Shown: piece by piece, positions 1 through 20,304 of the stretch
How positions within the stretch are numbered: position 1 is the stretch's first letter
How the letters are laid out: each line of letters starts with the position of its first letter
Source: Flavivirga jejuensis
GTDB lineage: Bacteria; Bacteroidota; Bacteroidia; Flavobacteriales; Flavobacteriaceae
Reading direction: 5' to 3'
NCBI RefSeq assembly: GCF_030540765.1
Contig: NZ_JAUOEL010000007.1
Span: 237,794-301,793 of the forward strand
DNA: 64,000 bases
Notes under the pieces: generated by a model
What the model was told of the DNA's origin: nothing
Seen by the model: the letters and a program-made list of their open reading frames with translations, nothing else
Databases searched by the model: none
Translations under genes and position numbers: made by a program

Positions 1-541
1 CATTAGTACTATGTATGTTTTCGAGTAATGCTATGACTCGATTTTTAGCCAAGGCAAAACCATCTTCGTTCATTTGATTGGCACCAAAATGAATAATACC
101 TGCATACTCATCTCCAGCCTCAACGGTGACACAGGACGTAAAGTGCCCATTTTCAATACAACTCGTCCAGTTTGCAGAGGCACTTGATTCATCTAGTGAC
201 CCTTTATCAAAATAGATAAAAAGTGCCACAGGTGTGTTATAGCTTCTCAACCTCTCAATGACTTGCTGTTGAAAATCGACACCGGATTCAGGAATAAATA
301 TTTCCCTAATCAATTGTTGTGCGATATCCATCTCTGGATTATTTCCAAATAATAACTCTCCAGATATGATTTCATTTGGATTTAACAATCTATACTGATC
401 AGATGATGGCTCTTCCACATAATAAACCTTAAGATGATCTACTATATACGACTCTACACTAGAATCTTGACCTATTGACACCTTAGAATTCAATACAATT
501 ATCAGAAGGCATATAAGCCTTAAATGTTTGGATACTTTCAT
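1..541 (-). CDS. Secreted caspase-like protein paralogue, partial (C-terminus outside window)
   Basis: The reading frame opens with ATG at 539-541 and stays open to the window edge, giving 180 N-terminal residues. A signal peptide ends near Ile-Gly-Gln (about residue 24). The rest aligns over its whole length with the N-terminal part of the gene at 682-2074: shared blocks include SDQY.LLNP.EII, ALFIYFD, ANWT, GHFT.C and the HFGANQ/HYGANQ pair. That paralogue carries its His/Cys dyad further downstream, so the catalytic part here would lie outside the window. The gene is the last visible member of the minus-strand secreted-protein operon and arose by a local tandem duplication (see relic at 553-645). 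Existence of the frame is seen; protease activity is only inferred from the paralogue. Confidence 0.8.
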   Translation of the reverse strand, partial: MKVSKHLRLICLLIIVLNSKVSIGQDSSVESYIVDHLKVYYVEEPSSDQYRLLNPNEIISGELLFGNNPEMDIAQQLIREIFIPESGVDFQQQVIERLRSYNTPVALFIYFDKGSLDESSASANWTSCIENGHFTSCVTVEAGDEYAGIIHFGANQMNEDGFALAKNRVIALLENIHSTN

Positions 542-552
542 AATTTTGAATT

Positions 553-645
553 TTAAAATTGTCCTATGTTAATGAGATGAATTATTTCATCTGTGAACGA
601 TTTACGTTCTTCAAAAATAGACTTACTTCTGTCCTTATAGCCACT
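553..645 (-). pseudogene. Relic of the 3' end of the 656-residue operon gene (duplication scar)
   Basis: Read on the minus strand this stretch encodes a peptide containing FEERKSFTDEIIHLINIGQF and then a stop. This matches the C-terminus of the protein at 2132-4102, which reads VEERKSSTDETIYLINSGQF and then a stop. There is no start and no further upstream similarity. It sits directly upstream of the partial paralogue at 1-541, as the intact gene end sits upstream of 682-2074. It is therefore the truncated left edge of a duplicated segment, not a functional gene. Confidence 0.8.
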
Positions 646-681
646 AGTAAAATACAAGCGTTAGCGGGGTTGATTTTTAAT

Positions 682-2074
682 CTATTCTTGATTTATTTTC
701 TTTGTAGTTGAGTTATTAAGTCTTTTTCTAAAAATTTCTATCCCTTTTTCAAGTCTAATTTTTGATTCTTTATTTAACCTTAAATAATCAAGATTTTGGT
801 CTTCACCGTTAAGTATGTCCCAAAAATTATCAAACCCTATAACTCCAATTTCTCTAAAAAGTATGTGTATGTTACCTCTGGTAGAAGATTCTTCTTTCGT
901 TAATTGAGTATCTCCATTCTTATCCTTGTATGTCTCTGAAAAAATTACAACTTGCATTTTTGTTTTTAGCATCCTTATCTGGGATGCTAAAATCACTTTT
1001 AAGTTTATACATAATAAACTTAGGCAATTTTTCCCCCGAAGACATACTTCTAATTTGCGAATTTCTAACCCCATCTCCCGAAACAATATTTCCATAAATA
1101 TCCAAAGAAGGTAACGCTTCTGAAACTTTTTGCAAGACACCATTAGTAGCCCCACTAGAGCAGTGATGAAAAATAATCTTAGTTCCAGGATCAAGATTTG
1201 CTTCTCTAAGAACCTCTATTAACTCATTACTATAATATCCTTTACGCCATGTTCTTGTACCTATAGCAACACGATCATTCCAACCGTGGCCAAAACTATG
1301 AATTATTTTAGGCTTAGATTCCAATAATTTTTGCAAACTCTTTTTTGTGGGTGCGTAAGCTCGTTTTACTTTATGATCTTTAGCTGCTTTTTTAGCATAC
1401 CCCTCAGAATTAGGATTAGAGGAGTCGTAAAGAAATAGAGGTTCTGGAATTATCGGGTCTTCTTTTACATCTATCCTATAATGCACCATTCTCCTTTCCG
1501 CTTGCTCCCCACTAATATCTGTATTACTCTCGGGAGACGTAAAACCTGATCCATTTAATAATTCTACTAGGCGATTTTGAGATGTTTCGAGACAATCTAT
1601 ATTGAGTTGATTGGCGCCATAATGCACCGCACTGGCATAGTCATCATTTTCTTCTCGTGTTAAACAAGGAGTAAAATGACCGCTCTCAATATAATCAGTC
1701 CAGTTGGCAGCTGCAATAACCTCATCTACAGGTTCACTATCAAAATAAATAAAAAGTGCTGATGGATCATCATTGTCGCGTAATGCACGCACAATACTTT
1801 CTTGAAAGTCCCCGTCTGAATTGGTATTATATATACTTCTTACTAGGCTTTGAGCTACTTGCATTTCAGCATTTCCACCAAAAAGTTCTCCACCATCAAT
1901 TATTTCATCGGGATTCAATAAAGTATATTGATCGGATTCTGGATCCTGCACATAATATACCATAAGGTTATCTCTCAGAAATGAACTCGTAGTCGATTCT
2001 TGCCCCCAAGTATTTATAGCAAAAAAGGCAAATATTATTAGGTGTGTGTGTTTTATATATAGTTGTGTTTTCAT
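682..2074 (-). pseudogene. Secreted caspase-like (clan CD) peptidase candidate, frameshifted
   Basis: The main frame (ATG at 2072-2074) encodes a signal peptide ending TWGQ (about residue 25), a conserved N-terminal region shared with the partial paralogue, and a block with HSFGHG (His263-Gly264) followed by IIFHHCSSG (Cys305). A hydrophobic strand before His-Gly and another before Cys is the hallmark of clan CD (caspase/gingipain/CHAT-like) peptidases. The frame stops at 920, but a second frame carries on with a plausible C-terminal segment ending at 682. The switch maps to two five-T runs at 957-967, where one extra base would explain it, giving about 464 residues if repaired. It is either a real frameshift or a homopolymer sequencing error. 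Family assignment is by motif only. Confidence 0.65.
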
Positions 2075-2131: not shown

Positions 2132-4102
2132 TTAAAATTGCCCAGAATTAATAAGATATATTGTTTCGTCTGTGGACGATTTACGTTCTTCTACAATAGG
2201 GTCTTGGCCTTTTAATATCCATTTTATCTGATAGTCATACTCCAATATATCTTCCTCTAGTATGATACTGACCCGCTGTGATAGATCGTCTTTACTGAAG
2301 TCTACTCTAATCGATTTTCTCTTTTCCTTATCACCTTGTTTATAAAAGACCTTAACCTCAGCAAAGCGGACTAGATTATCGTCTACAATACTCTCATCTA
2401 CATTAATATATATATCCTTTTTCTTAAATGGCGGGGCTAGTGTAATGGCTCCAGCTTCACGAGTAGTCCAAGGCGTGCTTACCTCATGACCTCCATGAAA
2501 ACTCCATGTGGCCTTATACTCGTATTCCAACCACTTGCTGCGGTTATTATCTCCCTTCCAGCCATATGGCTCAAATTTGAAATTGTTACCTCGGTTAAAG
2601 TTTTTTCTATCTATTCGAATCTCTCGCTGAGTAACGTTTCCACTTTGGTGCTTTTTCTTAAGCAAAACACTAATGTAATTAATGAATTGCCCAAAATCAC
2701 TAAGATTTGCTCCATCAATAAAGGCAATAATCTCGCGCTGTTTGTATAAAGGATCATCCATATTGAACATCCTGAAACAGTCTTTACAATTAACAACACC
2801 TATATTACCTCCAAAATTCTGAGGTTGATTTCGCATGATAGATTTCTCCATATTAATCGTGACACTACCTGATTTCTTTTCTTTCTTAAATTGAAATGCT
2901 GCGGCAATGGCAATTACAGGCGCTGAGGAGGCACTATCGGTATTAGATGAAGAAGGTTCGTAAGGAGGAACCGTTGAAGGTTCATCACTTGGACTTGCCC
3001 TGCGAACAGCCACTCCTGCCGTAGGAGTAGTCGAATCACTAGTTGATGCTGTATCGTTTTCATCATTATCCCTATCAGACGAAGTTGATGGCGAATTTCG
3101 TGTTGAAGGCACAGAAGTCCTAACTGGACGATTTGCCCTGCTACGATCTCGTTCATGATCACGTCGCTGTTGACTCAACATGGTACTTGCTCTATCCAAC
3201 ATACTAGGTCTTCCATTAGCATTGGAAGTTAATTGCGATAATGAAGGAGCAGATGTGTTTTCTTGAGATTCAAAAATACCAGTCTGGATCATCTCCATGA
3301 CCACGTTACGAATCTGATCAAAATCTTCATCCTCTCCAACCTCAGTGATTTTAATAACACGATTACTTATCATTTCGCTAACTGCTACATCAACTTCGGC
3401 AGCCAGAACAGGTGTTGCGATTCCTCCTTGAAAATTATTATGCTTATATATTTCTTCCCACTTAAAACTGACATTGGCAGATATAGGCGCGTTATATCCT
3501 TCAATTTCCATATTGAATGTAAAACTGAGATCTGCAATATTGGCTTTAAATGACTCCCAAAGTGTTTTCGCTCCTTTTCTAGTCAGAAGCATGGAAACAG
3601 GGATTTTCTGCCCTTCCAATACTGGAGCTGCTCCCATACCAAGAACTTGCTTTGTAAATTCTTCATTACCGGCGTTAAATGTGGAAACCAGTGCCACGGT
3701 ACCTCCCCTATACATAACTGGGCCTTTAATTTTTCCTTTGGGATTGATTCTGCGTAGTTCTTGTTGGGCCTCCATTTTTTGTTCATCAGAAACACTCAGT
3801 TCGATGAGCGCTGTAACAATGCCACCGCCAGCACCTTCTGTATCCTTATATGATTCTTCATTATCGTCGGTACTTACATTTTCTACCCATCGGATAAAAG
3901 AGAATTCGGGTTTTCCGTTTTCTCCTCGTGCAAGGCGTACTTTGTCTGCCAGATAATAATACTCGTTCTTATTATAAATATTTGGAAATAGTTTTAAATC
4001 TCCAGCTTCTACTAAATCGTCTAGAACTATCGCTTGAGCAACTATTGATTCAGAAGTGAAAGCATCCAAAATTATTAGGCCTATTAAAATTATTTTTTTC
4101 AT
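2132..4102 (-). CDS. Secreted protein of the two-domain beta-rich family (656 aa)
   Basis: Full-length member of a paralogous family that fills this operon. After a signal peptide (cleavage near VAQA, residue 23) comes an N-terminal domain with the family signatures NEYYYLADKVRLA, GKPEFSFIRWVEN, AGGGIVTALIELS, KIKGPV and APVLEGQKIPVSMLL. A Ser/Thr/Arg/Asp-rich linker follows (about residues 290-395), longer than in any paralogue. The C-terminal domain carries the blocks CKDCFRMFNMDDPLYKQREI, KKKHQSGNVTQREI, WLEYEYKATWSFHGG and LAPPFKKKDIYI. No enzyme motif or T9SS sorting domain was recognised, so a periplasmic or surface role is inferred only from the signal peptide. It lies 57 bp upstream of the caspase-like gene and 24 bp downstream of the 224-residue paralogue. 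Confidence 0.85.
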   Translation of the reverse strand: MKKIILIGLIILDAFTSESIVAQAIVLDDLVEAGDLKLFPNIYNKNEYYYLADKVRLARGENGKPEFSFIRWVENVSTDDNEESYKDTEGAGGGIVTALIELSVSDEQKMEAQQELRRINPKGKIKGPVMYRGGTVALVSTFNAGNEEFTKQVLGMGAAPVLEGQKIPVSMLLTRKGAKTLWESFKANIADLSFTFNMEIEGYNAPISANVSFKWEEIYKHNNFQGGIATPVLAAEVDVAVSEMISNRVIKITEVGEDEDFDQIRNVVMEMIQTGIFESQENTSAPSLSQLTSNANGRPSMLDRASTMLSQQRRDHERDRSRANRPVRTSVPSTRNSPSTSSDRDNDENDTASTSDSTTPTAGVAVRRASPSDEPSTVPPYEPSSSNTDSASSAPVIAIAAAFQFKKEKKSGSVTINMEKSIMRNQPQNFGGNIGVVNCKDCFRMFNMDDPLYKQREIIAFIDGANLSDFGQFINYISVLLKKKHQSGNVTQREIRIDRKNFNRGNNFKFEPYGWKGDNNRSKWLEYEYKATWSFHGGHEVSTPWTTREAGAITLAPPFKKKDIYINVDESIVDDNLVRFAEVKVFYKQGDKEKRKSIRVDFSKDDLSQRVSIILEEDILEYDYQIKWILKGQDPIVEERKSSTDETIYLINSGQF

Positions 4103-4126: not shown

Positions 4127-4792
4127 TTAATTCGATCTTTGGAAAGACTCTATTACTTTTCTTGAATCGTCTTTTTTGTATTCCTTTGCTAACTTTTTAG
4201 CCCTTTTATGAATTTCAGATTTTGGATTCGCAAGACCTTCTGGTGCATTTATATAGATGAAATTATCACGGACCAAAGATTTCCAAGGAAGCATAAGATT
4301 TCCATGATCTTTATGTACAAAAACCAAACGATATACATATTGAGAAGCATCGCGATCAGTATAAATTTTACGTTCAATGTAGGGTCTAGTACCTTCCTCT
4401 ACATTTAGGACCATAATAGCTTCATTTTCTTTCCCAAATTGCATATATCGTAAAGCGACATAAACCATGAAAAACCCGTTATCTTTTAGATTCTTAATAT
4501 CTCCTTCTACCCCAATAGTTTTACTAAATATTGGCGGAACAACGGGCAGACTTGGATTTTTTTTAGAATTAAACAATAGTGCATCCGAAGTATAAGTATT
4601 GCCATTTTTAAGTCTCCATTCTTGATAATAATTATAGTGATTCGATACTTCTGATTTTTTTATAATGATCCTGACTTCGTCAATGATTTCATTCAACAAG
4701 TCACGATCGTACTGATCAAAATGAAAAACCTGACCTTCTGCCGCCCAAAGATTAGCGAAGATTATTAAAGCTGTTATTATTAGATGTTTCAT
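4127..4792 (-). CDS. Secreted C-terminal-domain-only paralogue
   Basis: A short member of the operon family that contains only the last domain of its larger relatives. Residues about 80-200 align with the end of the 638-residue neighbour: shared patterns include DI..LK..G...V...Y.QF.KE, I..KI..D.D...YVYRL...HK, LPW..LV.DN.IY...PE.L, and a Lys-rich helix at the end. The start chosen is ATG 4790-4792, because nearly every gene in the operon begins with a similar ATCATGAAA context and a signal peptide (cleavage near AAEGQ) follows. ATG 4799-4801, three codons earlier, overlaps the upstream stop codon and is equally possible. Function unknown. Confidence 0.8.
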   Translation of the reverse strand: MKHLIITALIIFANLWAAEGQVFHFDQYDRDLLNEIIDEVRIIIKKSEVSNHYNYYQEWRLKNGNTYTSDALLFNSKKNPSLPVVPPIFSKTIGVEGDIKNLKDNGFFMVYVALRYMQFGKENEAIMVLNVEEGTRPYIERKIYTDRDASQYVYRLVFVHKDHGNLMLPWKSLVRDNFIYINAPEGLANPKSEIHKRAKKLAKEYKKDDSRKVIESFQRSN

Positions 4793-4800
4793 GATTTCCA

Positions 4801-6717
4801 TTAATTACTTTTAAATAATTCTTCAAATTTATCGAGGACCTTTTCACTTGCTTTCTTTACAATGTCCTCACCTGTTTTCTTGGCAATCTTGAACACTTCA
4901 GATTCCGTATCCATTAAATCCTCAGGAATAACCGCGTAGATATAATTATCGTTGACCATAGGTTCCCACGGAAGTACTAGCTTCTTTTCTTTTTTATGGT
5001 TTATAATCAAGCGGTATACATAACCATTGGTGTCTTTATCAACAAAAATCTTCTTGTTTATAATAGGCTCTCCTTTTTGTGTAGATAATTGAATATTCGA
5101 ACGAACCTCTTTATCAAATTGTTTGTAGGCTATTTGCGCGGTTATTCTTGTAATACCACTGTTCTTCAATTCGTCTATGTCTGCCTCCAATTCTACAGTT
5201 CTAGGAGTTACAGGAGGTTCAAGGGTGACGCCTTCCCAAGCCCCTGTTTGCCATCTTGGATTTTTTGGGTAAATATTACCACCGCTGAGGCTCCACTGAG
5301 CTTGATATTCGTAAGCTGACGAATCAGTGTCTTCGCCACGTGCATATGTTTTCACTCCTGTGATTCCATTCTTCTCAATAAAGACTTTATCTATGGTGAG
5401 ATGATCTTCATAATCATTACCCGAACTTCGTTTCTTACGAACGTTTACGGTAACATAGTTAATCGCCTCATCAAACATTTCTTTGGCCTCTAGATCCAAG
5501 ACAAAACGGATATCTCGATGCTTAAAGAAGGGATCATTCAAATTTACACTGTAAATACATTTTGGATTATCCTTTACTTGATCATACCAACTGGCCAAAT
5601 TACCTACGATCTGATGTGGTTGCTTAACGGCTAGTCTCACTTCCCTGAGATCAATGACTTTTGTTTTTCTTTTGATAGAGGTCTTGGAAAGCGACGTTTT
5701 ATAAGTATAACTATTTCCTTTTCTAATATCAGGAACAGCCAGTGTATCGGCTAATGTCATAGCACCAGTGGCTTCATCACTATTAGAGTCGCCTAGATCC
5801 GTAAATGCGTTCAAAAAATATTGAAAAAAGGCTTCACGTATAACGGTAACACGCTCATCATTAAGCATTTCTTCCCATTCAAAACGTATCACCTCACTTT
5901 CACGTAGAAAGTCAAAGTGTGACCTTACTTCGTCGTAGGATTGTTTTTCATTATGTTTCCAAAACCAATGCCCATTATGACTTTCCTTGTATTCAGCCGA
6001 AATTTTATCATACTGAGTCGCAAGTTTAGTCCAGTCAAAAACAATTTTCCCTTTTACCGCTGGCGTCTGAAGCGTAAAATAATAGTCTAATACAACTGAA
6101 AGATCAGTGATAGAGTTGGCTTTTTCGAAAGTGGATGCCAATAGCTGTGCTCCATATTTATCCAGTTGTGACGCTGCCGCAGCCTTACCACCTTCAATAA
6201 GAGGTGCCTTTCCAGAGGTGACTAAACTTGAAGTTCTCTTATTGTCGGACATTGTAGCCGATATAATTCGAAATGAATCTGCTTTATCATCTAAACTCAT
6301 AGGAATCGCTCCCATAAATTTTGCGCCTTTTTTCTTTGCCGCTAATTTCCGCTCCAACTCTACTTTCTGTTCTGGTGTCAGCCCCCATTCCATTAAAAAA
6401 TGCATAATAGCTCCTCCTATTCCACCTTGAACCTCGCGCTCTTCCGTAGTAAATTTCGCAAATAGAAACTCTGGAGTACCATCTGGTTTTGACCCAATCT
6501 TCAACCCTGTGGGCAGCATATAATATTTATTAGTTTTTTGTCCTATGACCTTTGAACTTTGCCCATATAATATGACCGTAGTACCATCGTCCAGTTTGAT
6601 GTCTATTTTATTCATCGCATCCATATTCTGCCCAAGCATCGTCAGTGGCAGTATGAGTAAGGCCAAAATGAGCATATTCCGTAATATTTTTAGTGTTGTT
6701 CTACTTTGTTGTTTCAT
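4801..6717 (-). CDS. Secreted protein of the two-domain beta-rich family (638 aa)
   Basis: Full-length paralogue. A long basic N-region precedes the signal peptide core (cleavage near MLGQ, about residue 30). The N-terminal domain shows KYYMLPTGLKIG, GTPEFLFAKFTTEE, GGIGGAIMHFLMEWGLTPEQ and SGKAPLIEGGKAAAASQL. The C-terminal domain shows the family blocks DPFFKHRDIRFVLDLEAKEM, VNVRKKRSSGNDYEDH, YEYQAQWSLSGGNIY and EGVTLEPPVTPR, then a Lys/Glu-rich terminal helix shared with the 224-residue neighbour. The stop codon overlaps the possible upstream start of that neighbour by one base, indicating co-translation. No catalytic motif is visible. Function unknown. Confidence 0.85.
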   Translation of the reverse strand: MKQQSRTTLKILRNMLILALLILPLTMLGQNMDAMNKIDIKLDDGTTVILYGQSSKVIGQKTNKYYMLPTGLKIGSKPDGTPEFLFAKFTTEEREVQGGIGGAIMHFLMEWGLTPEQKVELERKLAAKKKGAKFMGAIPMSLDDKADSFRIISATMSDNKRTSSLVTSGKAPLIEGGKAAAASQLDKYGAQLLASTFEKANSITDLSVVLDYYFTLQTPAVKGKIVFDWTKLATQYDKISAEYKESHNGHWFWKHNEKQSYDEVRSHFDFLRESEVIRFEWEEMLNDERVTVIREAFFQYFLNAFTDLGDSNSDEATGAMTLADTLAVPDIRKGNSYTYKTSLSKTSIKRKTKVIDLREVRLAVKQPHQIVGNLASWYDQVKDNPKCIYSVNLNDPFFKHRDIRFVLDLEAKEMFDEAINYVTVNVRKKRSSGNDYEDHLTIDKVFIEKNGITGVKTYARGEDTDSSAYEYQAQWSLSGGNIYPKNPRWQTGAWEGVTLEPPVTPRTVELEADIDELKNSGITRITAQIAYKQFDKEVRSNIQLSTQKGEPIINKKIFVDKDTNGYVYRLIINHKKEKKLVLPWEPMVNDNYIYAVIPEDLMDTESEVFKIAKKTGEDIVKKASEKVLDKFEELFKSN

Positions 6718-6752
6718 GATCTCTAATCTTTTTGTAATTAATTATCTTTTGT

Positions 6753-10292: not shown

Positions 10293-11426
10293 CTAATTTT
10301 TAATTACACTTACGAACTCTTTTTGAGAACTTACATCTATTATGCTTGACCATTTTATTTTGGTTTGCCAAACTCCAGTAATTACTTCGCCAGCCTCGGT
10401 CATTTCAATAACTCGGTAATAAAAAGGTTTGTCGAGCCTGACGGCATATTCAAATTTTAAGGCATGTGCTACAGTATATGGTGCACTTTTCATAAATTCC
10501 ACTTCCGTCTTTACAAACCCTACACCCGCTGCATGTGCCTTAAATTCGACAATCTTTCCAATGAGATCAGAACGAATATTGTCGCTAAAATCATGACAAT
10601 AAATATCGATAAGCCCGTATCGTGGAGACAAAGTGCTGCCTAAATCTATCTCTTTAAGAAGGTCGGGCCACTTTTCTAAATCTAGGCTTACTGGAAAAGC
10701 ATCGGCAACTATTAATGTTTCACTTGGTGTCACTTGAGTAGAATCTCTTGAGGCATTTAGGTTCTTAAATAGAGCCTCTAACTCTTTTGAGCCATTATAC
10801 TTGTACGATACGCTATCAGTATATTTTCCTTTTGCCCATATAGCGTAGGCCACAGTCAATAGGGCCTTATCTTTTTCAAAACCATCCCAGAGTATTTCAG
10901 AGGTATGCTTATTTGGCCTGATCGTAAATGTTTTGGTTGACCAACGACCTTCTTTTTTATCCTGTTCAGTATTATGATATTTATTCTTTAAAACCTCAAT
11001 AGTGTCTGCATCAATGCTAGTGTAAACAAGATTTGCTTGAACCCTACTTAAAGGAATAGGAACTAATTTCGGCCTACATTGACTACATAAACGTTTTCTT
11101 AAGATGTTTTTTATTTCTCTAAGTATTTGCGGGCTTACCTGCTTCATACTTACCGTGAACTGAACCATATTAGTTTGCTTCCAGTTTTCATTGCCTTTCG
11201 CTCTACTTGGTATATAGGTCATTCGTGCAAAGGAAAAATTTGGCTTTCCGTCTGTGTCGACCACTAATTCTATGCCTTGAGGCGCAAAATAGAATTTGTC
11301 GGATTGTTTTTGATGTGCATAAATCGCCACTCCCTTTATCACCTCTCTTGATGATAAGTCGGGCTGTGCTTTTGTTTGGAAACAAAAACTCAAAAAGCAA
11401 AACAATATGATAACAAATCTTTTCAT
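10293..11426 (-). CDS. Secreted N-terminal-domain-like paralogue (377 aa)
   Basis: After a signal peptide (cleavage near TKAQ, residue 21) the protein resembles the first domain of its larger neighbours: KFYFAPQGIELVVDTDGKPN, FSFARMTYIP, a conserved strand-helix unit with MVQFTVSMKQ and Q.LREIKNILRK, then LWDGFEKDKALLTVAYAIWA. The second family domain is replaced by a divergent shorter end with a YRVIEMTEAGEVITGVWQTK block, which may be an eroded copy of the terminal strands. Cys95 and Cys98 (CSQC) are an unusual pair for the family. Together with the 224-residue gene it shows that the two domains can be encoded separately. Function unknown. Confidence 0.8.
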   Translation of the reverse strand: MKRFVIILFCFLSFCFQTKAQPDLSSREVIKGVAIYAHQKQSDKFYFAPQGIELVVDTDGKPNFSFARMTYIPSRAKGNENWKQTNMVQFTVSMKQVSPQILREIKNILRKRLCSQCRPKLVPIPLSRVQANLVYTSIDADTIEVLKNKYHNTEQDKKEGRWSTKTFTIRPNKHTSEILWDGFEKDKALLTVAYAIWAKGKYTDSVSYKYNGSKELEALFKNLNASRDSTQVTPSETLIVADAFPVSLDLEKWPDLLKEIDLGSTLSPRYGLIDIYCHDFSDNIRSDLIGKIVEFKAHAAGVGFVKTEVEFMKSAPYTVAHALKFEYAVRLDKPFYYRVIEMTEAGEVITGVWQTKIKWSSIIDVSSQKEFVSVIKN

Positions 11427-13903: not shown

Positions 13904-14464
13904 TTATTGATTGAAGAACCGACGTGCAGTTCCAACAGGTTTTAGTTCTAATACTATCGTTCGACTTGGGCGGTTAGCCAATGATGAAGAATCTTGGCCA
14001 GCATCAGAACCTTTGGGGCTCCATTGTTTTTTGAATTCGTACACATACGAGATTCCCTTTAATCTAAAGATGCCATTGGTTATGACTACTTCGATGAAAT
14101 CTGAATTCTTTTGATTGTCTCCTGATAGGTTTAATCGTGCTTTGATTGTTTTTTTTCCAGAAGACACTTTTTTCACAAAAGGTGTAATAGGCATAACTAT
14201 TCGCGTTCCAGATTTACTTAGAGCAAATACTTTTATCTGTTTCCCATCATAACCCTCTTGATGAATATTGATTTCTACGCTATGGTCCTTTTGACTAAGA
14301 ATTGTCACTTTTTCAACAGTCCCATCCATACCCTCTAATTGTTTGGATTTGGTGCCTTTTTTCTTGGCGCTCATTTCTGGTATATATGTAAGTTCTTCTT
14401 GCCCTGCGATATTAATACTGAAACTAATCAGTAAAAGAAATAGTAATAGATGTCGATTTTTCAT
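13904..14464 (-). CDS. Small secreted protein, first gene of the secreted-protein operon (186 aa)
   Basis: First gene behind the divergent promoter region. A signal peptide (cleavage near IAGQ, residue 22) is followed by about 160 residues of strand-rich sequence with EKVTILSQKDHSVEINIHQE, IVMPITPFVKK and YVYEFKKQWSPKGSDA. The YEFKKQWSPKG motif recalls the YEYQxxWSxxG block near the end of the large paralogues, so this may be a reduced relative of their C-terminal domain. No enzymatic motif is visible. The next gene starts only 17 bp downstream. It was not recognised as any named family. Confidence 0.75.
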   Translation of the reverse strand: MKNRHLLLFLLLISFSINIAGQEELTYIPEMSAKKKGTKSKQLEGMDGTVEKVTILSQKDHSVEINIHQEGYDGKQIKVFALSKSGTRIVMPITPFVKKVSSGKKTIKARLNLSGDNQKNSDFIEVVITNGIFRLKGISYVYEFKKQWSPKGSDAGQDSSSLANRPSRTIVLELKPVGTARRFFNQ

Positions 14465-14487: not shown

Positions 14488-14517
14488 TTTTATGTTATCA
14501 CATCAAAAAGGTTAACA
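14488..14517 (-). promoter_or_regulatory. Candidate ECF promoter of the secreted-protein operon
   Basis: On the minus strand GTTAAC (14516-14511) is followed by CTTTTT and, after exactly 17 bases, by ATAAAAAA (from 14493). The same arrangement, GTTAAC, five T, N17 in total, ATAAAAAA, occurs before the subtilase gene at 16036. It lies about 24 bp before the start codon at 14464. The spacing fits a -35/-10 pair for an extracytoplasmic-function sigma factor, whose gene is divergent here. Assignment to that sigma factor is inference. Confidence 0.6.
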
Positions 14518-14531: not shown

Positions 14532-14553
14532 TACATTTGAGTGTTAACTTTTT
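14532..14553 (+). promoter_or_regulatory. Sigma-gene promoter region with a third TGTTAACTTTTT element
   Basis: TACATTTG at 14532-14539 fits the Bacteroidota -7 consensus TAnnTTTG, though no clear -33 TTG lies at the expected distance. It is directly followed by TGTTAACTTTTT (14542-14553), the same element found at the two candidate ECF promoters. Here the element ends only 18 bp before the sigma-factor ATG, so as a -35 box it would give an almost leaderless transcript. It may instead act as a binding site overlapping the start of transcription. Confidence 0.4.
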
Positions 14554-14571
14554 TGCTATAAATGACATTAA

Positions 14572-15147
14572 ATGACTGAGCACTCGGATCAATTACTTTT
14601 TAATTCCTTAAAAGAAGGGTCTGATGATGATTTTAAAAAAGTATATAATGACAATAGACCCATGTTTTTAAATTTCGCTAAGAAATATGGCATTGCTGAA
14701 GAGGATATTTTGGATATCTATCAGGATGCTTATATCGTTTTTTATGAGAACATTCAAACTGGTAAGCTAGCTGAACTAAGGAGTTCTTTAGCGACATATT
14801 TGATGAGCATTGGAAAATATATGATACTAGATAAACTGAGGAAAAACAAAAAAAAAGTAGATGGTTATCAAATTTTAGAACGCGTAGAAGAGGTGGATTT
14901 AGAATTAGATTTTTTTGATATTATACAACCAAAGTTAAGTAAGGAACAAGTATTATTAAAAGACTATTTTGATAAACTTGGAGAGAGATGCCAACAAATA
15001 TTAACCTGGTTTTATTATAAGAAATATAACATCAAAGAAATTATGTCTGCAGGAAACTATAAAAGTGAGAACGTGGTAAAAAGCCAGAAGTCACGTTGCC
15101 TAAAAACATTAAAAGAATCCATGATTCAAAATATTAACCAGTCGTAA
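14572..15147 (+). CDS. ECF-type RNA polymerase sigma factor (191 aa)
   Basis: Sigma-70 family factor of the extracytoplasmic-function type, about the usual length (170-200). Region 2 spans roughly residues 20-95, with the DILDIYQDAYIVFYENI segment typical of region 2 core binding. Region 4 spans roughly 130-185, with LGERCQQILTWFYYKKYNIK and a second helix around SENVVKSQKSRCLKTL. The next gene starts inside its stop codon (TAATG), a one-base overlap that fits a sigma/anti-sigma pair. It is divergent from the secreted-protein operon. The shared GTTAAC-N17-ATAAAAAA elements suggest that it drives both that operon and the peptidase operon downstream, although this is inference. Confidence 0.9.
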   Translation: MTEHSDQLLFNSLKEGSDDDFKKVYNDNRPMFLNFAKKYGIAEEDILDIYQDAYIVFYENIQTGKLAELRSSLATYLMSIGKYMILDKLRKNKKKVDGYQILERVEEVDLELDFFDIIQPKLSKEQVLLKDYFDKLGERCQQILTWFYYKKYNIKEIMSAGNYKSENVVKSQKSRCLKTLKESMIQNINQS

Positions 15148-15881
15148 TGGAAAACGAGGAACTCATAAAGAAATATTTTTTAGACGAACTTAGTGACGTT
15201 GAGACTTCTTTGTTTCAGCGCCTTCTATTAGATGATTCCGTGTTCAGGAAGCAATTCGAGTTCGAAAAGAATCTACAACAGGTTATTAAGTCTAAAGAAA
15301 GAGCACGATTAAAAAGTAAATTAAGGGGACTCGAAAAAGAGCGAAAACAACAAGTTGTAAAAGTGTTTCCGAGATTGAAACTAATAGGAATTGCTGCTAC
15401 TCTTACCCTTCTTTTGGGGTTTGGATGGTACACGTTTATGAAGACCGATAGTATCAATCCGCAAGAACTTTACGCATCTAACTTCGAACTCTATCCCAAT
15501 ACTGTATATCCGATAACACGAGGCCAAGGTGATGACACTATTGAGCACCAGGCTTTTATGGCTTATGAATCTGACCAGCACGAAGAAGCCATTACGTATT
15601 TCAAGACATTAAAACAAGGTGCCCCTCCGAATTATATAGACTTCTATATGGGGCTATCCTATCTAAAAACAGGTAATCACGAAAATGCTATAAAACGCTT
15701 TACTGAAGTTATTGAGCAAAAGGGAAATTTTGACCATGAGGCTCGATGGTATTTAGCCCTATCATATTTAGCAAATAAGGATATTGACCAAGCTAAAGAT
15801 GTCTTAGAAATTTTGACCAAAAAAGGGTCTTACAAAAATGAAGAAGCCAACATAATTCTCCGAGCATTAGAACGACGTTAA
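15147..15881 (+). CDS. Membrane TPR protein, probable anti-sigma factor (244 aa)
   Basis: Residues 1-70 form a cytoplasmic helical part starting ENEELIKKYFLDELSD, a pattern common in Bacteroidota anti-sigma factors (short acidic N-terminus, then FE.NLQ.VIK). One membrane helix lies at about residues 76-94 (IGIAATLTLLLGFGWYTF). The outer part (about 110-244) has at least three tetratricopeptide-like repeats, for example A.MAYESDQHEEAITYFKTL and MGLSYLKTGNHENAIKRFTE. The TPRs would sit in the periplasm and could sense a partner while the inner part holds the sigma factor. No zinc-binding His/Cys motif is visible, so the anti-sigma role rests on position, topology and the overlap with the sigma gene. 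Confidence 0.8.
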   Translation: MENEELIKKYFLDELSDVETSLFQRLLLDDSVFRKQFEFEKNLQQVIKSKERARLKSKLRGLEKERKQQVVKVFPRLKLIGIAATLTLLLGFGWYTFMKTDSINPQELYASNFELYPNTVYPITRGQGDDTIEHQAFMAYESDQHEEAITYFKTLKQGAPPNYIDFYMGLSYLKTGNHENAIKRFTEVIEQKGNFDHEARWYLALSYLANKDIDQAKDVLEILTKKGSYKNEEANIILRALERR

Positions 15882-16035
15882 TATCTCACTTTCCTATTCT
15901 GATCGCAACCCCGATTTCGCCATATTTTCTAGAAACCACAATGACCCTGAGCGTTGAGCTATCAATAAAATACTTATCCATAACACTAAATATCAATTAG
16001 AGACACATGTGCTAATCTAAATTTTAGTACCTTTT

Positions 16036-16066
16036 GTTAACTTTTTCTGTCAATTCGCATAAAAAA
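16036..16066 (+). promoter_or_regulatory. Candidate ECF promoter of the subtilase/CHAT operon
   Basis: GTTAAC (16036-16041) is followed by TTTTTC and, after 17 bases, by ATAAAAAA (16059-16066), matching the element before the divergent secreted-protein operon in both sequence and spacing. The subtilase ATG lies 31 bp further on. The rest of the gap 15882-16035 shows no gene. Confidence 0.6.
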
Positions 16067-16097: not shown

Positions 16098-17396
16098 ATG
16101 AAAAGAACAATAACAATTCTAACTCTAATACTCAATCTTTCATTATATAACTGTAGCATAACATACAACAACATAATGGTAGATGAAGGAGCTAACACAA
16201 ATGAGAGTAGCTTGAAATTGTCAAACAATCAAATTGTGGTACGCTTGAAATCCAATATCACTACTGCTCGATTGAATCATTTAAAGGATACATTACATGT
16301 GTTGGATACCGAAGTAAAATATTGCTCTTGTGGTGATCAGAGCTTGCAATTATGGACCATTGATACTCGTTTAATAAAAATAGAAGAAGCTGTTAGTAGC
16401 CTTAAGAGAGAGAGTGAAAGTGAGGATGATGTAGAAGGAGGAGATCGTCAATTCACTTTTGGGCTTATGGATTTAGGAAATTATGCGCAAGAAAATGAAC
16501 CAGGTGGTTCGAATACATGGGTAGACCTGAGTTCTGATGCAAAGGTTAATATCGCCGTTCTTGACACTGGCTTAGACTATTACAGGACTGCTAGTGAAAA
16601 ACCTTATTTATTAAATACAGAGGGGTTGGACAACTGTTCGGATGGAGTGTCTACGGACAATAGAGTTTCTGGTTGGAATTTTATTAACGACTCATCAGAT
16701 TTCTTGGATGATCAAGGACATGGCACTTACGTTACCAACATTATAACATCAACATTAGATTCAATAAATGTCGGGTATCGTATACTACCATTAAAAGTAT
16801 TTAACAACGAAGGTCGAGGTTCGTATTGGGATATTGTCTGCGCTATGGATTATGTGCGCTGGATTAATGAGAAAGGAGCCAACATTAACATTGTGAATGC
16901 TAGTTTTGGAAGCGAGATGCCACAAAGGATCTCAGAGAGTCATAAGATTCTTGGAAAAATAATTAAAGACATGGCAAATGAGGTGTTATTTATTACATCT
17001 GCTGGAAACAGAGCCCTAAATACGGATGCCCCTGACATTGGACACTTTCCATCGGGTTATGAGTATGATAATATATTAGCCATTGGCGGGCACCGAATTG
17101 AAATAGAAAAGGCAGTGCTTCATCCACACTCTAATTATGGGAGATTTAGTATAGATGCTACAGCATCATATGCTAATTACAGCCTGATTTTGGACACTAG
17201 AGACACATATGTGAAGGATAAAGTTGAATTAGCAGGAACATCTTATGGAACAGCTTACATAACAGCTTTAGCAGCAAAATTTCATCAAGATAATGGCTCT
17301 CCAACTCCTATAATTATAAAAAGTGGTTTGTTGGACAAAGCTAGTCCGTCCCCTTTCCTCATTGGTAAAATATGGAATGGAAAATATTTTAAATAA
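16098..17396 (+). CDS. Subtilisin-family (S8) serine peptidase, exported
   Basis: The catalytic triad is complete: Asp156 in NIAVLDTGLD, His208 in GHGTYVTNI and Ser382 in GTSYGTAYITALAA, with Asn304 of SAGN forming the oxyanion hole. The N-terminus is a signal sequence with a possible lipobox (LYNC, Cys19), so it may be an outer- or inner-membrane lipoprotein. Residues 30-120 look like an inhibitory propeptide (IVVRLKSN...LKDTLHVL). The length, 432 residues, is normal for a compact subtilase. It is the first gene behind the shared GTTAAC promoter and lies just upstream of the mini-protein and the CHAT gene. A role in processing the secreted proteins of the divergent operon is an inference. 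Confidence 0.9.
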   Translation: MKRTITILTLILNLSLYNCSITYNNIMVDEGANTNESSLKLSNNQIVVRLKSNITTARLNHLKDTLHVLDTEVKYCSCGDQSLQLWTIDTRLIKIEEAVSSLKRESESEDDVEGGDRQFTFGLMDLGNYAQENEPGGSNTWVDLSSDAKVNIAVLDTGLDYYRTASEKPYLLNTEGLDNCSDGVSTDNRVSGWNFINDSSDFLDDQGHGTYVTNIITSTLDSINVGYRILPLKVFNNEGRGSYWDIVCAMDYVRWINEKGANINIVNASFGSEMPQRISESHKILGKIIKDMANEVLFITSAGNRALNTDAPDIGHFPSGYEYDNILAIGGHRIEIEKAVLHPHSNYGRFSIDATASYANYSLILDTRDTYVKDKVELAGTSYGTAYITALAAKFHQDNGSPTPIIIKSGLLDKASPSPFLIGKIWNGKYFK

Positions 17397-17404
17397 AAAA
17401 CACA

Positions 17405-17509
17405 ATGGCTAAAAAGCAAATTATGCGCTTGTTATTGAGAACTCGCGCCATACTTTTGAGCCTGCTACTCTATATGTTGCTATGTCTATTGACTATCTTT
17501 ATAATATGA
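17405..17509 (+). CDS. 34-residue single-pass membrane mini-protein
   Basis: An ATG 8 bp after the subtilase stop opens a 34-codon frame starting MAKKQIMRLLLRTR and continuing into about 20 hydrophobic residues (ILLSLLLYMLLCLLTIFII). A basic N-terminus plus one strong membrane helix is a typical small bacterial membrane protein. Its TGA overlaps the ATG of the CHAT gene (ATGA at 17506-17509), the usual arrangement for coupled translation, which supports both this frame and the chosen CHAT start. No family recognised. Whether it is a membrane-active effector, an anchor or a leader peptide cannot be read from sequence alone. Confidence 0.6.
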   Translation: MAKKQIMRLLLRTRAILLSLLLYMLLCLLTIFII

Positions 17510-20304
17510 AACAGCGTTTTACAATCTGCTTTTTTATTAGCTTAAGCACTCTCTCTCTTTGCTATGGGCAGCACGAAAATCTATTGAAAATATTAGCATC
17601 TGATGCTAGTACTCCATTAAAACAACAACAAATAGATTCGTTTTTGTTGACCCACGAGAAAACAATACCCAAAAAAATCTTGGCTGATTGCTATCACGAT
17701 CTAGGGAGCAAATGGTATTATAGAAACTGGAGAAAAGACAAAAACAAAGAAAATTTAGAAGCTGCTATTCTCGTCACTGACAAGGCATTCAACATTAAAA
17801 AAAATGAAGAGAAGCTAGTAAAAGGATCCTTGGAAAAAACACTTTATAACTTAGGGTATTTCAACTCTAAGAACGATGCTATTTATGAAGCAATAAGTGC
17901 GTATTCATATCTGATTGAAAAGGGTAAAGACAATGGCAAAATACTAAGTGCCAATCGTGAACTTGGAAAGCTCTATGCATTGACGGGCGATTTTTACAAG
18001 GCTTTAAATAGATTTGATGCTTACACTTCATCTCATTCGACCAAAGACACCCTAAGTAGGAAACAAATACTAGGATTACTCGAAATAAACCTTTCCAAAG
18101 CAGAAACCTACGCAATCATGGGATTTGAGGAATTCTCGAATGAAATTGATTCGCATTTAAAAAGTGCAGATTCATTATTGAAGAATGTTAGTGATGCAAA
18201 TAATGAATTTAGGAATAGTATAGACCAATTATATGGCAACAGATTGCTAAAAGCAAGAAACTATAAAGAAGCCATATATTATCATAAACTCGTTATTAAA
18301 GATTCATTACAGTTAGAACCTAATAATTTGGCAAGGGTATACAATAGTTTAGCATATTCACAAATCAAACGAAAAGATCTAGATTCTGCATTGGTTAATT
18401 TGAATAAAGCAATCACACTTGATCCTGATTATACGGACCCATACGAGAATATGGGAGATCTGTATATCTCTAAGAACAAATTTGAAAAAGGTCTGTCTTT
18501 TTATCAAAAAGCAATAGTTCTAGGCACCTCCAGAAGTGATGGTTTTCGTTATGACAATCTAGTCTCCATCCAAAATCTCGAAGTATCTGCTAACAAAGTA
18601 GTAATCTTACAAAACATTATCACCAAAGCAAATGGATGGTTGAAGTACTATCAGTATGACTCTAATAAAGAACATCTTATCCAAGCATTGAAAACGTTTT
18701 CTTTAGCTGATAAACTTGTGGATTTAATACGGTCTGAAAGCACTGAATATCAATCAAAACTATTCTGGAGAGAGCAGAGTGCCGAATTATATATGAAAGC
18801 TGTAGAAGTTTGTTTTCTGCTCGAGAAACCTAAGGAAGCTTACTATTTCATGGAACGAAACAAGGCTTTATTATTATTAGAAGACATTACAAGCGAAAAC
18901 GCCAAGGAAATTTCAAAATTACCAAATGTCATTGCAAAGCGAGAATTTGAATTAAAAAGATCCATATTTCTTTCCGAAAACGAGTTGCAGAATATGAGCA
19001 CTACATTAACAGCTAAGAAACAGATATTAAAAGAAAAAATCTATGAGAACAAACATGAATATTCAAAATTCATGGATTCTATCTCCATCTCCTTTCCAGA
19101 ATACTCTAGGCTTAAAGGTAAATTGAACATACTTCCTTATCAATATTTAGTAGATAATTATGTTTCCGAAGAAGATTATGTACTGCAATATATATTGAAT
19201 AATGAACAAGGCTATGGCTTGCTAACCCTAAAAGAGGGACCTTTTTTCTTTAAGTTAGATGGAGGAACAGAACTTATTGATGAAATACTTCAACTCTTTA
19301 ATCTTTTGAGAACATTGGTTTCCGACCGAGAAAAAAATGCCAATTACAACAATGTATCCTACGGTCTTTTTAAAAAGCTCATACCAGAAACAGTATATAA
19401 TAAATTAAAAGGCAAAAAACTATTAATCATTGCAGATTATGTATTGCAGCAAATCCCATTCGAAGCCTTGGTAGTAAATAACACTAATAATACTGTAAGA
19501 TATTTAATAGAGGACACAGAAATCAGATATGCTTATTCCATGTCGTACCTAAGTGCTAAAAAGCAAATTATTAGGAATCCTAAAAAAAGTATATTAGGGG
19601 TGGCTCCTGGTGAATTCAATATCAAGAATTTACCCAAACTTAATTTTAGTACCGAAGAGGTCAATCAAGCTGCAAGAATATATAATGGAGATGTTTTCTT
19701 GAATAAAGATGCTACAAAATCTAATTTGCTGGATAATATATACGACCACAAAGTCATTCATCTTTCTACCCACGCAGATATTGGGAAGAATGGAAATCAC
19801 TGGATTGCATTTAGTGACAAAAAGTTATTCTTAAATGAAATCTATATTACAAAAAACCAAGCGGAGATGGTGGTTTTGAGTGCTTGTAATACATCTTCAG
19901 GAGAGTTGAAAAAAGGAGAAGGCATCATGAGTTTGGCTCGCGGATTCTTTCACTCGGGTGCAAAGAGTGTCGTTTCTTCCTTATGGACTATTGATGATAA
20001 AATCAGTAAGGACATTATTATTGAATTCTACAGAGGATTAGATAAAGGACTTACTAAATCGGCATCACTCCGTGAGGCCAAACTAAAAATCATTCAAAAA
20101 TATCGTAATACTGCAGTAAGTCCATCATATTGGGGAGCTCTCATCGTCATTGGCGATAATACCCCAATCCAAAATTATGGATTCTTCAAAAGGAATTGGT
20201 TGTACTTGTCTTTTGGAACTTTTATGTTTGGTCTCCTTATTTTTTTCCTAAATAATCGTCTTAAAAAAATTGTTATGCGTTTAAATATTATTTTTAATCT
20301 TTAG
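17506..20304 (+). CDS. TPR-CHAT caspase-like protease, exported and membrane-anchored (932 aa)
   Basis: The start at 17506 is preferred over the ATG at 17482 because it begins a good signal peptide (MKQRFTICFF..., cleavage near CYGQ) and overlaps the mini-protein stop. Residues about 50-400 hold several TPR units, for example LARVYNSLAYSQIKRKDLDS and YENMGDLYISKNKFEKGLSF. The C-terminal third is a CHAT domain (about 600-890) with His756 in HLSTHA and Cys794 in LSACNTSSGE, followed by GIMSLARGFFHSGAKSVVSS. CHAT domains are clan CD peptidases. A membrane helix near residues 902-920 and a basic tail close the protein, so the protease should lie in the periplasm, anchored at its C-terminus. Placement with an S8 peptidase and a mini-protein suggests a proteolytic activation cascade, which is an inference. 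Confidence 0.9.
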   Translation: MKQRFTICFFISLSTLSLCYGQHENLLKILASDASTPLKQQQIDSFLLTHEKTIPKKILADCYHDLGSKWYYRNWRKDKNKENLEAAILVTDKAFNIKKNEEKLVKGSLEKTLYNLGYFNSKNDAIYEAISAYSYLIEKGKDNGKILSANRELGKLYALTGDFYKALNRFDAYTSSHSTKDTLSRKQILGLLEINLSKAETYAIMGFEEFSNEIDSHLKSADSLLKNVSDANNEFRNSIDQLYGNRLLKARNYKEAIYYHKLVIKDSLQLEPNNLARVYNSLAYSQIKRKDLDSALVNLNKAITLDPDYTDPYENMGDLYISKNKFEKGLSFYQKAIVLGTSRSDGFRYDNLVSIQNLEVSANKVVILQNIITKANGWLKYYQYDSNKEHLIQALKTFSLADKLVDLIRSESTEYQSKLFWREQSAELYMKAVEVCFLLEKPKEAYYFMERNKALLLLEDITSENAKEISKLPNVIAKREFELKRSIFLSENELQNMSTTLTAKKQILKEKIYENKHEYSKFMDSISISFPEYSRLKGKLNILPYQYLVDNYVSEEDYVLQYILNNEQGYGLLTLKEGPFFFKLDGGTELIDEILQLFNLLRTLVSDREKNANYNNVSYGLFKKLIPETVYNKLKGKKLLIIADYVLQQIPFEALVVNNTNNTVRYLIEDTEIRYAYSMSYLSAKKQIIRNPKKSILGVAPGEFNIKNLPKLNFSTEEVNQAARIYNGDVFLNKDATKSNLLDNIYDHKVIHLSTHADIGKNGNHWIAFSDKKLFLNEIYITKNQAEMVVLSACNTSSGELKKGEGIMSLARGFFHSGAKSVVSSLWTIDDKISKDIIIEFYRGLDKGLTKSASLREAKLKIIQKYRNTAVSPSYWGALIVIGDNTPIQNYGFFKRNWLYLSFGTFMFGLLIFFLNNRLKKIVMRLNIIFNL

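What the first reader, a model, noticed from the sequence alone, without database searches (positions are those of the whole stretch)
1..20304. Candidate new secreted conflict or surface system: sigma, anti-sigma, subtilase, mini-protein, CHAT protease and a ten-gene secreted paralogue operon
Minus-strand genes 14464-1 encode secreted proteins only, most sharing one or both domains of one beta-rich family I cannot name, one fused to two ricin-type lectin domains. They end in caspase-like genes. Divergently, an ECF sigma/anti-sigma pair is followed by an S8 peptidase, a 34-residue membrane protein and a TPR-CHAT protease. Sequence shows the genes and motifs; known families are CHAT (clan CD), S8, ECF, ricin-B. 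That they form one regulated, proteolytically controlled system is my inference.
Basis: partly seen in the sequence, partly recalled or inferred. Interest (0 to 1): 0.85.

Follow-up and report, generated by a model that had tools for sequence, protein, structure and literature searches.

The report
Six-subunit secreted complex with enzyme cargo
A flavobacterium carries an operon for six related secreted proteins that match no catalogued family, followed by interchangeable, partly cell-wall-cutting enzymes; relatives of the set recur in distant bacteria, so it may be an undescribed bacterial machine for attack or digestion.

Summary
The minus-strand operon runs 2.4 kb past the window. It encodes six homologous secreted subunits (R810, A377, A592, A581, A638, A656), two small proteins, and three proteins that share an operon-specific N-terminal domain but end differently (Amidase_2; two without a family hit). 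The family and structure libraries searched give the core no identity. The same six subunits occur in seven secreted-type loci (Bacteroidota, one Planctomycetota MAG). About six relatives without clear leaders occur in six further loci (Bacteroidota, two alphaproteobacterial plasmids), several beside CHAP endolysin, caspases, phospholipase D, tyrosinase or trypsin. Five of five testable subunits form one clade each across loci. Sigma, anti-sigma and CHAT accompany only the 3 flavobacterial loci of 7, and such modules also exist alone. In the window a rare motif, TGTTAACYTTTT, precedes the operon, the sigma gene and the S8-CHAT unit, which supports one regulon there. Best reading: a hetero-oligomeric scaffold deploying swappable hydrolases, switched on in flavobacteria by a protease-gated ECF sigma. 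Assembly, docking, export route, target and proteolytic gating are inferred. The 34-residue protein and the plural caspase ending are not supported.

The parts
13904..14464 (-). S186, secreted 186-aa protein heading the operon; resembles the N-terminal part of the R subunit in three other loci
   Evidence: hhalign with the N-terminal part of three R proteins 88.9%, E 2.4e-6, against 0.2-1.1% for three control profiles
11454..13886 (-). R810, subunit 1: ricin-type lectin repeats plus a core domain distantly like A377
   Evidence: Pfam PF14200 3.8e-61; core part matched in the 6 other secreted loci; R vs A377 hhalign 79-86%
10293..11426 (-). A377, subunit 2 (N-terminal paralogue domain)
   Evidence: hhalign 96-98% to A581, A592, A638, A656; one clade across 7 loci, 100/99
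8509..10287 (-). A592, subunit 3 (both paralogue domains)
   Evidence: one clade 100/99 across 7 loci
6753..8498 (-). A581, subunit 4 (both paralogue domains; AlphaFold2 pLDDT 79)
   Evidence: one clade 100/99
4801..6717 (-). A638, subunit 5
   Evidence: one clade 100/100 across the 6 rows used
4127..4801 (-). A224, small secreted relative of the C-terminal part of A638 (not in all loci)
   Evidence: 35.5% identity to A638 466-632, E 1e-32
2132..4102 (-). A656, subunit 6, with a long low-complexity insert
   Evidence: one clade 91/99
920..2074 (-). X384, cargo 1: operon-specific N-domain (about 1-175) plus a C-terminal part with GHG and HHC motifs, no family hit
1..541 (-). X464, cargo 2 (cut by the window edge; whole gene L003:8941-10335). 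The operon goes on beyond the window to X505, cargo 3 (L003:7376-8893), which ends in Amidase_2
14572..15147 (+). ECF-type sigma factor
   Evidence: Sigma70_r2 8.1e-8
15147..15881 (+). probable anti-sigma factor: N-terminal part, membrane span near residues 77-97, TPRs behind it
   Evidence: TPR hits; hydrophobic stretch and gene position, read by eye; no anti-sigma family hit
16098..17396 (+). S8 subtilase with a lipobox-like leader (by eye) and D/H/S motifs
   Evidence: Peptidase_S8 1.4e-21; motifs
17482..20304 (+). TPR-CHAT protease; by eye a leader from an internal Met and a C-terminal membrane span; H760/C799
   Evidence: CHAT 4.2e-51
14506..14517 (-). motif TGTTAACCTTTT before the operon; CATAAAA 16 bases behind TGTTAAC
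14542..14553 (+). motif TGTTAACTTTTT before the sigma gene; ACATTAA 16 bases behind TGTTAAC
16035..16046 (+). motif TGTTAACTTTTT before the S8-CHAT unit; CATAAAA 16 bases behind TGTTAAC

Best explanation
It is a multi-subunit secreted scaffold with interchangeable hydrolase cargo. Six homologous, non-redundant subunits (R, A377, A592, A581, A638, A656) are made together, pass the inner membrane by Sec-type leaders and assemble, probably one of each, into a hetero-oligomer in the envelope or outside the cell. R carries a variable binding module (ricin lectin here) for attachment. Cargo proteins dock on the scaffold through their shared N-domain and bring different lytic ends (amidase, HExxH zincin, others not identified), so the particle degrades peptidoglycan or proteins of a competitor, prey or matrix. 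In flavobacteria it is silent until an ECF sigma factor is freed; the S8 lipoprotein and the periplasm-facing TPR-CHAT protease, made from the same regulon, are placed to cut the anti-sigma's outer part or to mature the cargo. Shown: genes, homology, six-subunit conservation, an N-domain found only in the operon, leaders, shared motif. Inferred: assembly, docking, export past the periplasm, target, proteolytic gating.
For: The same six subunits in each of 7 secreted loci, in nearly fixed order, and about six relatives in each of 6 leaderless loci. Five of five testable subunits form one clade each across loci (R not testable), so subunit identity is old and kept. The cargo N-domain was found in 2 of 299 family genomes, both with the operon, all 5 copies in the operon; 8 copies carry at least six C-terminal parts unlike each other by BLASTP. 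Enzymes at the cargo position or beside the leaderless sets: Amidase_2 1e-14, astacin 4e-40 plus C70 1e-28, HExxH in 3 of 4 proteins looked at, CHAP 1e-9 and PG_binding_1, two C14 caspases 9e-24 and 3e-19, tyrosinase 9e-38 and trypsin 3e-10. S186 looks fused to R elsewhere. Three motif sites in the window against 0.17 expected, 0 of 100 shuffles with as many. Higher G+C than the rest of the window (0.362 vs 0.327) and absence from the two other genomes of the genus in the draw suit an acquired accessory system.
Against: No experiment shows assembly or docking; six retained paralogues could also act apart. No clear immunity gene was seen, though short ORFs at the cargo genes leave this open. 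No T9SS sorting tail was found on the eleven operon proteins, while a nearby gene does hit one, so export beyond the periplasm is unproven. Two of the three cargo C-terminal parts of this genome have no family hit. The N-domain was not recovered in the Planctomycetota cargo nor in the Flavobacteriaceae MAG's astacin protein. Foldseek found no meaningful fold. The motif was noticed by inspection and then tested; genome-wide it is no commoner than its reversed control (14 vs 15 in G000), and it is absent before the sigma genes of G148, L055 and G224 and points away from the sigma gene in L063.
Confidence: 0.42

Rival explanations
1. Periplasmic envelope-stress module: the six proteins stay in the periplasm as chaperone- or cage-like scaffolds and the hydrolases remodel the cell's own wall or remove damaged proteins under an ECF stress response.
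For: Plain Sec-type leaders and no T9SS tail; ECF sigma with membrane anti-sigma and periplasm-facing proteases is the usual layout of an envelope-stress circuit (established knowledge).
Against: Very patchy presence (3 of 249 family genomes with the full set, the window's included; 1 of 395 in the phylum draw, the window's own), a lectin domain, unlike cargo from locus to locus, and leaderless relatives on plasmids do not suit a house-keeping role.
Confidence: 0.22
2. Nutritional digestion complex: an extracellular, cellulosome-like assembly that feeds on peptidoglycan and protein of dead cells.
For: Identified cargo is hydrolytic, no clear immunity genes were seen, the lectin could bind debris.
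Against: Tyrosinase, phospholipase D-like and caspase neighbours of the leaderless relatives, and the STAND-like/EAD1 genes beside one of them, fit conflict better than feeding.
Confidence: 0.18
3. No machine: an old tandem duplication of beta-rich secreted proteins of separate function, with a regulatory module and enzymes that drifted next to them.
For: No structural evidence of a complex; regulatory genes are separable; parts of the gene set vary (A224, the 229-236-aa genes of two MAGs).
Against: Same six subunits together in 7 of 7 secreted loci, each of five groups one clade; N-domain found only in operon genomes; likely S186-R fusion.
Confidence: 0.12

Closest known systems
Craspase / CASP-sigma of type III-E CRISPR (Csx29 TPR-CHAT, Csx30, ECF sigma)
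   Same: A TPR-CHAT protease encoded with an ECF-type sigma factor and its inhibitor; there the protease cuts the inhibitor, which is proposed to free the sigma factor (PMC10028731, passages seen).
   Different: Here the CHAT protease seems to have a leader and a membrane anchor, there is a membrane anti-sigma and an S8 lipoprotein, and the linked operon encodes secreted subunits. No CRISPR gene was recognised among the window ORFs looked at (1-24 kb). Cleavage not tested.
Polymorphic toxin / effector systems (N-terminal delivery domain, swapped C-terminal enzymes)
   Same: Cargo proteins share an N-domain and differ in the C-terminal part, a peptidoglycan amidase included.
   Different: No known delivery domain, no clear immunity gene, and a six-gene paralogue set instead of a known secretion device.
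EAD-linked conflict systems (PMC7159879, passages seen)
   Same: The Paracoccus relative of the core stands directly behind trypsin-EAD1, EAD1 and NTPase genes; constant core plus variable effectors.
   Different: The passages seen describe no six-paralogue core and no secreted version; the window proteins have no EAD hit.
Contractile injection systems and phage tails
   Same: Multi-gene set with lytic enzymes (CHAP plus peptidoglycan-binding beside a leaderless set).
   Different: Seven core or small proteins and three cargo proteins gave no PHROGs tail, sheath or baseplate hit; the only clear hits were lysis amidases for X505 (R810 not scanned). Subunits have Sec-type leaders; tblastn of A581 against 50,697 phage records gave none.
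DegS/RseA-type sigmaE control (recalled; also named in PMC10028731 passages)
   Same: Membrane anti-sigma with proteases facing the periplasm.
   Different: S8 and CHAT proteases in place of DegS and RseP; cleavage not shown.

Membership tests
Caspase/CHAT (clan CD) protease | CHAT domain with His and Cys catalytic motifs in the 940-aa protein | tested here: met
   PF12770 4.2e-51; HLSTHA 760, LSAC 799
Caspase/CHAT (clan CD) protease | caspase-type domain in the 384-aa cargo protein | tested here: inconclusive
   GHG 262 and HHC 303 present but no Pfam, NCBIfam or PDB hit; in 199 family genomes the only match is the gene itself
S8 subtilase | S8 domain with Asp, His, Ser motifs | tested here: met
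   PF00082 1.4e-21; DTG, HGT, GTSYGT
Polymorphic toxin system | shared N-terminal domain with swapped C-terminal part | tested here: met
Polymorphic toxin system | cognate immunity gene beside each effector | tested here: inconclusive
   no clear gene between the cargo genes, but an ORF in another frame (682-1194) covers most of the 378-base spacer behind X384 and a possible 77-aa ORF follows X505 (L003:7141-7374; its 5' end is where the stretch was cut)
T9SS cargo | C-terminal sorting domain | tested here: not met
   no Por_Secre_tail hit at E 0.1 in the eleven operon proteins; positive control window 23627-24100 hits PF18962 1.7e-11
Contractile injection system / tailocin | sheath, tube, baseplate families | tested here: not met
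   no such PHROGs or Pfam hit in the proteins scanned; R810 was not in the PHROGs scan
CASP-sigma circuit | CHAT protease cleaves the sigma inhibitor | not testable with these tools
   needs protein work; sigma, anti-sigma and CHAT adjacent in 3 flavobacterial operon loci and in L063 and L055
EAD-linked conflict system | EAD domain on core and effector | tested here: not met
   no EAD hit in the window proteins scanned; EAD1 found only in genes beside the Paracoccus relative
Known anti-phage defence system | PADLOC model hit | tested here: not met
   10 of the 15 locus proteins scanned, 0 hits at E 0.01 (A377, A592, A224, S186 and the anti-sigma not scanned)

The most novel reading that the evidence does not exclude
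A new class of bacterial nanomachine: an obligate hetero-hexamer (one copy each of six homologous subunits) that carries swappable lytic enzymes through a dedicated docking domain. It exists in a secreted form (Bacteroidota, Planctomycetota) and a cytosolic form (Bacteroidota, alphaproteobacterial plasmids), armed by protease-gated sigma factors in one lineage and placed beside STAND-like/EAD1 sensor genes in another.
Probability: 0.3. Interest if true: 0.92.

Novelty: categorically new. Interest (0 to 1): 0.72.

Why it matters
If the core is a real assembly, it adds an undescribed type of multi-subunit carrier of hydrolases to the bacterial arsenal, found in two phyla for certain and a third if the planctomycete bin is right, with no family model in the libraries searched. 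The flavobacterial version would also give a case apart from CRISPR in which a TPR-CHAT protease sits with an ECF sigma and a membrane anti-sigma, so the question what such proteases cut becomes directly testable.

Tried and rejected
Tried without result: PDB sequence searches with A581, X464, the alignment of 24 paralogues, the X384 C-terminal part, a zincin cargo and the amidase part; the four hits (E 0.3-0.8) are taken as noise. Foldseek with two AlphaFold2 models against PDB (both) and BFVD (the first): among the 50 rows shown each time TM on the query is 0.06-0.22, and the rows are unrelated folds, many Ig/FN3-like or phage structural proteins. tblastn against phages with A581 and with a Paracoccus subunit: none. 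A viral-contig scan: none. tRNA near the left end: none in L003 and L035. C-terminal parts of X384 and X464 in 199 family genomes each: only the genes themselves. Paper searches: no description of the set in the listings; the library lacks most subscription journals.

Rejected: phage tail or injection machine (no family hits); the 34-residue membrane protein as a component; an obligate link with sigma, S8 and CHAT. Considered and left open: TIM-barrel glycosidase for the X464 end and lysozyme-like end for the 486-aa Muriicola cargo; both are recalled resemblances without a Pfam hit. R subunit versus the leaderless 867- and 887-aa relatives: not shown by hhalign (0.2-0.3%), only by BLAST links among leaderless sets (Paracoccus 744 aa to G045 867 aa, 6e-16; Pararhizobium 817 aa to G351 887 aa, 9e-5).

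Full report
What is there. The window is part of a 6.0-Mb, 33-contig genome (C31:237794-301793). A genome of the same family, G231, has a contig of the length and content of Muriicola sp. Z0-33, so the window is from a flavobacterium (inference). On the minus strand from 14464 leftwards lie S186, R810, A377, A592, A581, A638, A224, A656, X384 and X464, with gaps of 57 bases or less up to X384 and 378 bases before X464. X464 is cut by the window edge. The contig continues with the rest of X464 and, 47 bases on, X505, so the operon has eleven genes and reaches 2.4 kb beyond the window. All eleven have a hydrophobic N-terminus (2.3-3.7 on an 11-residue scale). An ORF in another frame (682-1194) covers most of the spacer behind X384; whether it means anything was left open. 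On the plus strand from 14572 stand sigma, a probable anti-sigma, S8 and TPR-CHAT.

The core family. A581, A592, A638 and A656 are homologous over both halves, A224 matches the C-terminal part of A638 and A377 N-terminal parts. Profile comparison with two control profiles (CHAT, S8) gave 100% among the four, 96-98% for A377 against them, 79-86% between A377 and R, and at most 4.7% for any pair with a control; R against the four gave only 1-11%. Pfam gave no significant family for the core apart from R810's lectin, nor did NCBIfam and PHROGs (R810 not included) or PADLOC (of the core A656, A638, A581 and R810 only). AlphaFold2 on 24 sequences gave a moderate model (pLDDT 79, pTM 0.50): a mixed alpha/beta N-terminal half and a beta-rich C-terminal half. 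The N-terminal half alone gave pLDDT 75. Foldseek found nothing convincing.

Relatives, secreted type. One pattern-based scan of the collection of 84,980 named genomes found six loci: Muriicola sp. Z0-33, a Flavobacteriaceae MAG, a Segetibacter MAG, a Chitinophagaceae MAG, a Marinilabiliaceae MAG and a Sedimentisphaerales (Planctomycetota) MAG, whose binning I could not verify. With the window that makes seven. Each holds R, A377, A592, A581, A638 and A656; the order is the same except in the Flavobacteriaceae MAG, where R and A377 stand at the end. In Segetibacter A638 reads as two ORFs, and in Marinilabiliaceae the set lies on two contigs. The family is rare: the A581 protein hit 6 of 249 genomes of the window's family (3 with the full set, the window genome included, and 3 with distant relatives), and the A581 profile at E 1e-10 hit 1 of 395 in a phylum draw, the window genome itself. 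The two other genomes of the genus in the family draws lack it. G+C is 0.362 in 1-20304 and 0.327 in the rest of the window.

Relatives without leaders. Three family genomes (G045, G224, G195) have clusters of six proteins of about 750-900 aa, homologous to the core by hhalign (99.7%, E 1e-26) and by a core N-domain profile built without them (best 1e-21; 867-aa type not hit). A Bacteroidota genome of another family (G351) and two plasmids, Paracoccus sp. SMMA_5_TC pNSM5TCa (with a sister strain) and Pararhizobium qamdonense p2, hold further ones. Counting the R-like protein, linked only by BLAST among leaderless sets, Paracoccus has six (745, 767, 790, 818, 756, 744 aa) and Pararhizobium six (817, 600, 863, 897, 759, 828 aa). 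In G351 three are firm, and the 278-, 603- and 887-aa proteins are weak or unproven. None of the 24 leaderless proteins of G045, G224, G195 and G351 exceeds 1.8 on the scale used; the Paracoccus and Pararhizobium subunits reach 1.95, close to the lowest leader-bearing proteins (about 2), so the scale alone does not decide those. In a tree of 62 N-domains each of A581, A592, A638, A656 and A377 is one clade over its 6-7 rows (four starred, A656 91/99), and each of five leaderless groups of two or three rows is one clade; the split between the two types is weakly supported (70/91). So the subunits are old, distinct and co-inherited, not recent copies.

Cargo. X384, X464 and X505 align with each other only over their first 169-187 residues (46-61% identity). 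The same N-domain occurs in two proteins in Muriicola, one in Segetibacter and two in the Chitinophagaceae MAG, always at the end of the operon. A profile of it found 2 of 299 family genomes, both carrying the operon, and all five places lie in the operon (the profile contains these sequences, so the informative part is the 297 empty genomes). What follows the N-domain differs: of eight C-terminal parts only the Segetibacter one and one Chitinophagaceae one are alike by BLASTP (8e-82). X505 ends in Amidase_2 (1e-14); the Segetibacter and one Chitinophagaceae protein have HExxH; the others have no Pfam hit. The Planctomycetota cargo has HExxH and resembles these two over about 70 residues (1e-5) but has no recovered N-domain, and the Flavobacteriaceae MAG has astacin plus C70 domains without it. 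Two MAGs carry a 229-236-aa gene with NlpC/P60-like residues by eye (no Pfam hit). Beside the leaderless sets stand CHAP plus peptidoglycan-binding in G045 (a similar gene in G224), two C14 caspases in G351, and in Paracoccus a phospholipase D-like gene (record annotation), tyrosinase and trypsin. The Pararhizobium neighbours scanned had no Pfam hit, and the far side of the G195 set was not fetched.

Regulation. In the three flavobacterial operon loci sigma, anti-sigma and a CHAT gene stand next to the operon (the Muriicola one only 29% identical and turned round), S8 in two of them. The other four show no such genes in the DNA seen: about 22 and 8 kb of flank in the Chitinophagaceae MAG; about 22 and 13 kb in the Planctomycetota MAG, which has sigma-like genes 8-12 kb away and a 2,561-aa S8-containing protein about 1 kb downstream; about 11 and 1 kb in Marinilabiliaceae; 2-3 kb in Segetibacter. 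Whole-genome CHAT search found none in the Segetibacter, Planctomycetota and Marinilabiliaceae genomes and one on another contig of the Chitinophagaceae genome; these are MAGs and may be incomplete. Conversely Muriicola has a complete sigma/anti-sigma/CHAT/S8 module on another contig, and the Chitinophagaceae MAG a sigma/anti-sigma/CHAT one, without the core beside it. G224 has S8, sigma and anti-sigma-like genes about 4-8 kb from its leaderless set. So the regulatory arm is separable. Yet in the window TGTTAACYTTTT occurs exactly three times, at the starts of operon, sigma gene and S8-CHAT unit, against a shuffle mean of 0.17 and 0 of 100 shuffles with three; the shorter TGTTAACYTT gives the same three sites but 7 of 100 shuffles reach three. 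In the ranges I scanned, TGTTAACYT occurs at ten sites: three in the window, both directions of the Muriicola spacer, before S8 and before a divergent gene of the stand-alone Muriicola module, and before S8, the core operon and a 314-aa gene in the Flavobacteriaceae MAG. CATAAAA follows after exactly 16 bases in three of the ten and ACATTAA in two; the other five have neither. Genome-wide the 12-mer occurs 14 times in the window's genome against 15 for its reversed control. Of the 11 sites outside the locus I examined 7: five lie inside ORFs, two do not. The motif is missing before the sigma genes of the Flavobacteriaceae MAG, L055 and G224. I found it by inspection, so the numbers are post hoc; its recurrence at matching unit starts in other genomes is the stronger point.

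Mechanism. Old, co-inherited, non-redundant paralogues point to a hetero-oligomer, and an operon-exclusive N-domain on unlike C-terminal parts points to docking. The variable lectin insert on R (ricin repeats in the window and Muriicola, no ricin hit in the five other loci) points to binding. By eye S8 has a lipobox-like leader in 4 of 4 inspected, CHAT has a leader and a C-terminal membrane span, and the anti-sigma has a membrane span with TPRs behind it. The proteases are therefore placed to reach the anti-sigma's outer part. In Craspase a TPR-CHAT protease cuts the inhibitor of an ECF sigma, proposed to free it (PMC10028731; passages). That parallel is functional, not a membership claim.

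Novelty and limits. Eight paper searches (listings seen, passages read of PMC10028731 and PMC7159879) gave no description. I call the core categorically new because no library searched names it and its architecture matched nothing I could test; what it does remains inference. The largest gaps are the lack of any structural match, of proof of assembly and of a known export route.

Noticed in passing
window 21021-22466: HipB/HipA-like toxin-antitoxin genes next to the CHAT gene (HTH-like ORF, HipA N-terminal-like ORF by eye, HipA_C 1e-45).
   Followed up: no
L003:4343-4657 and window 22804-22947: Short ORFs that look, by eye, like remnants of a tyrosine recombinase and of a transposase on the two sides of the operon region; with the higher G+C they fit an acquired island.
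   Followed up: no
G000:C23 (L004:18-599, 4581-7241): A second CHAT protein of this genome (148 bits), with a sigma-like gene about 4 kb away, a retropepsin-like ORF (by eye) and a response-regulator-like ORF (by eye), without the paralogue set.
   Followed up: partly
window 682-1194: ORF in another frame overlapping the end of X384 and filling most of the spacer before X464; not interpreted.
   Followed up: no
L063:9575-15694: Stand-alone sigma/anti-sigma/CHAT/S8 module in Muriicola with a divergent 172-aa protein whose start carries a form of the motif; a simpler system in which to look for the protease substrate.
   Followed up: partly
L102:8390-13277: Trypsin-EAD1, EAD1 and STAND-like NTPase genes directly before the Paracoccus relative of the core: a possible sensor arm of the leaderless form.
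   Followed up: partly
L040:18413-21682 and on (G633:C29): Very large (2,561-aa) S8-containing protein, with a region that looks by eye like DUF4347, about 1 kb behind the Planctomycetota operon.
   Followed up: no
L039:6832-7776: 314-aa secreted protein of the Flavobacteriaceae MAG, no Pfam hit, with the motif upstream: possible further regulon member.
   Followed up: partly
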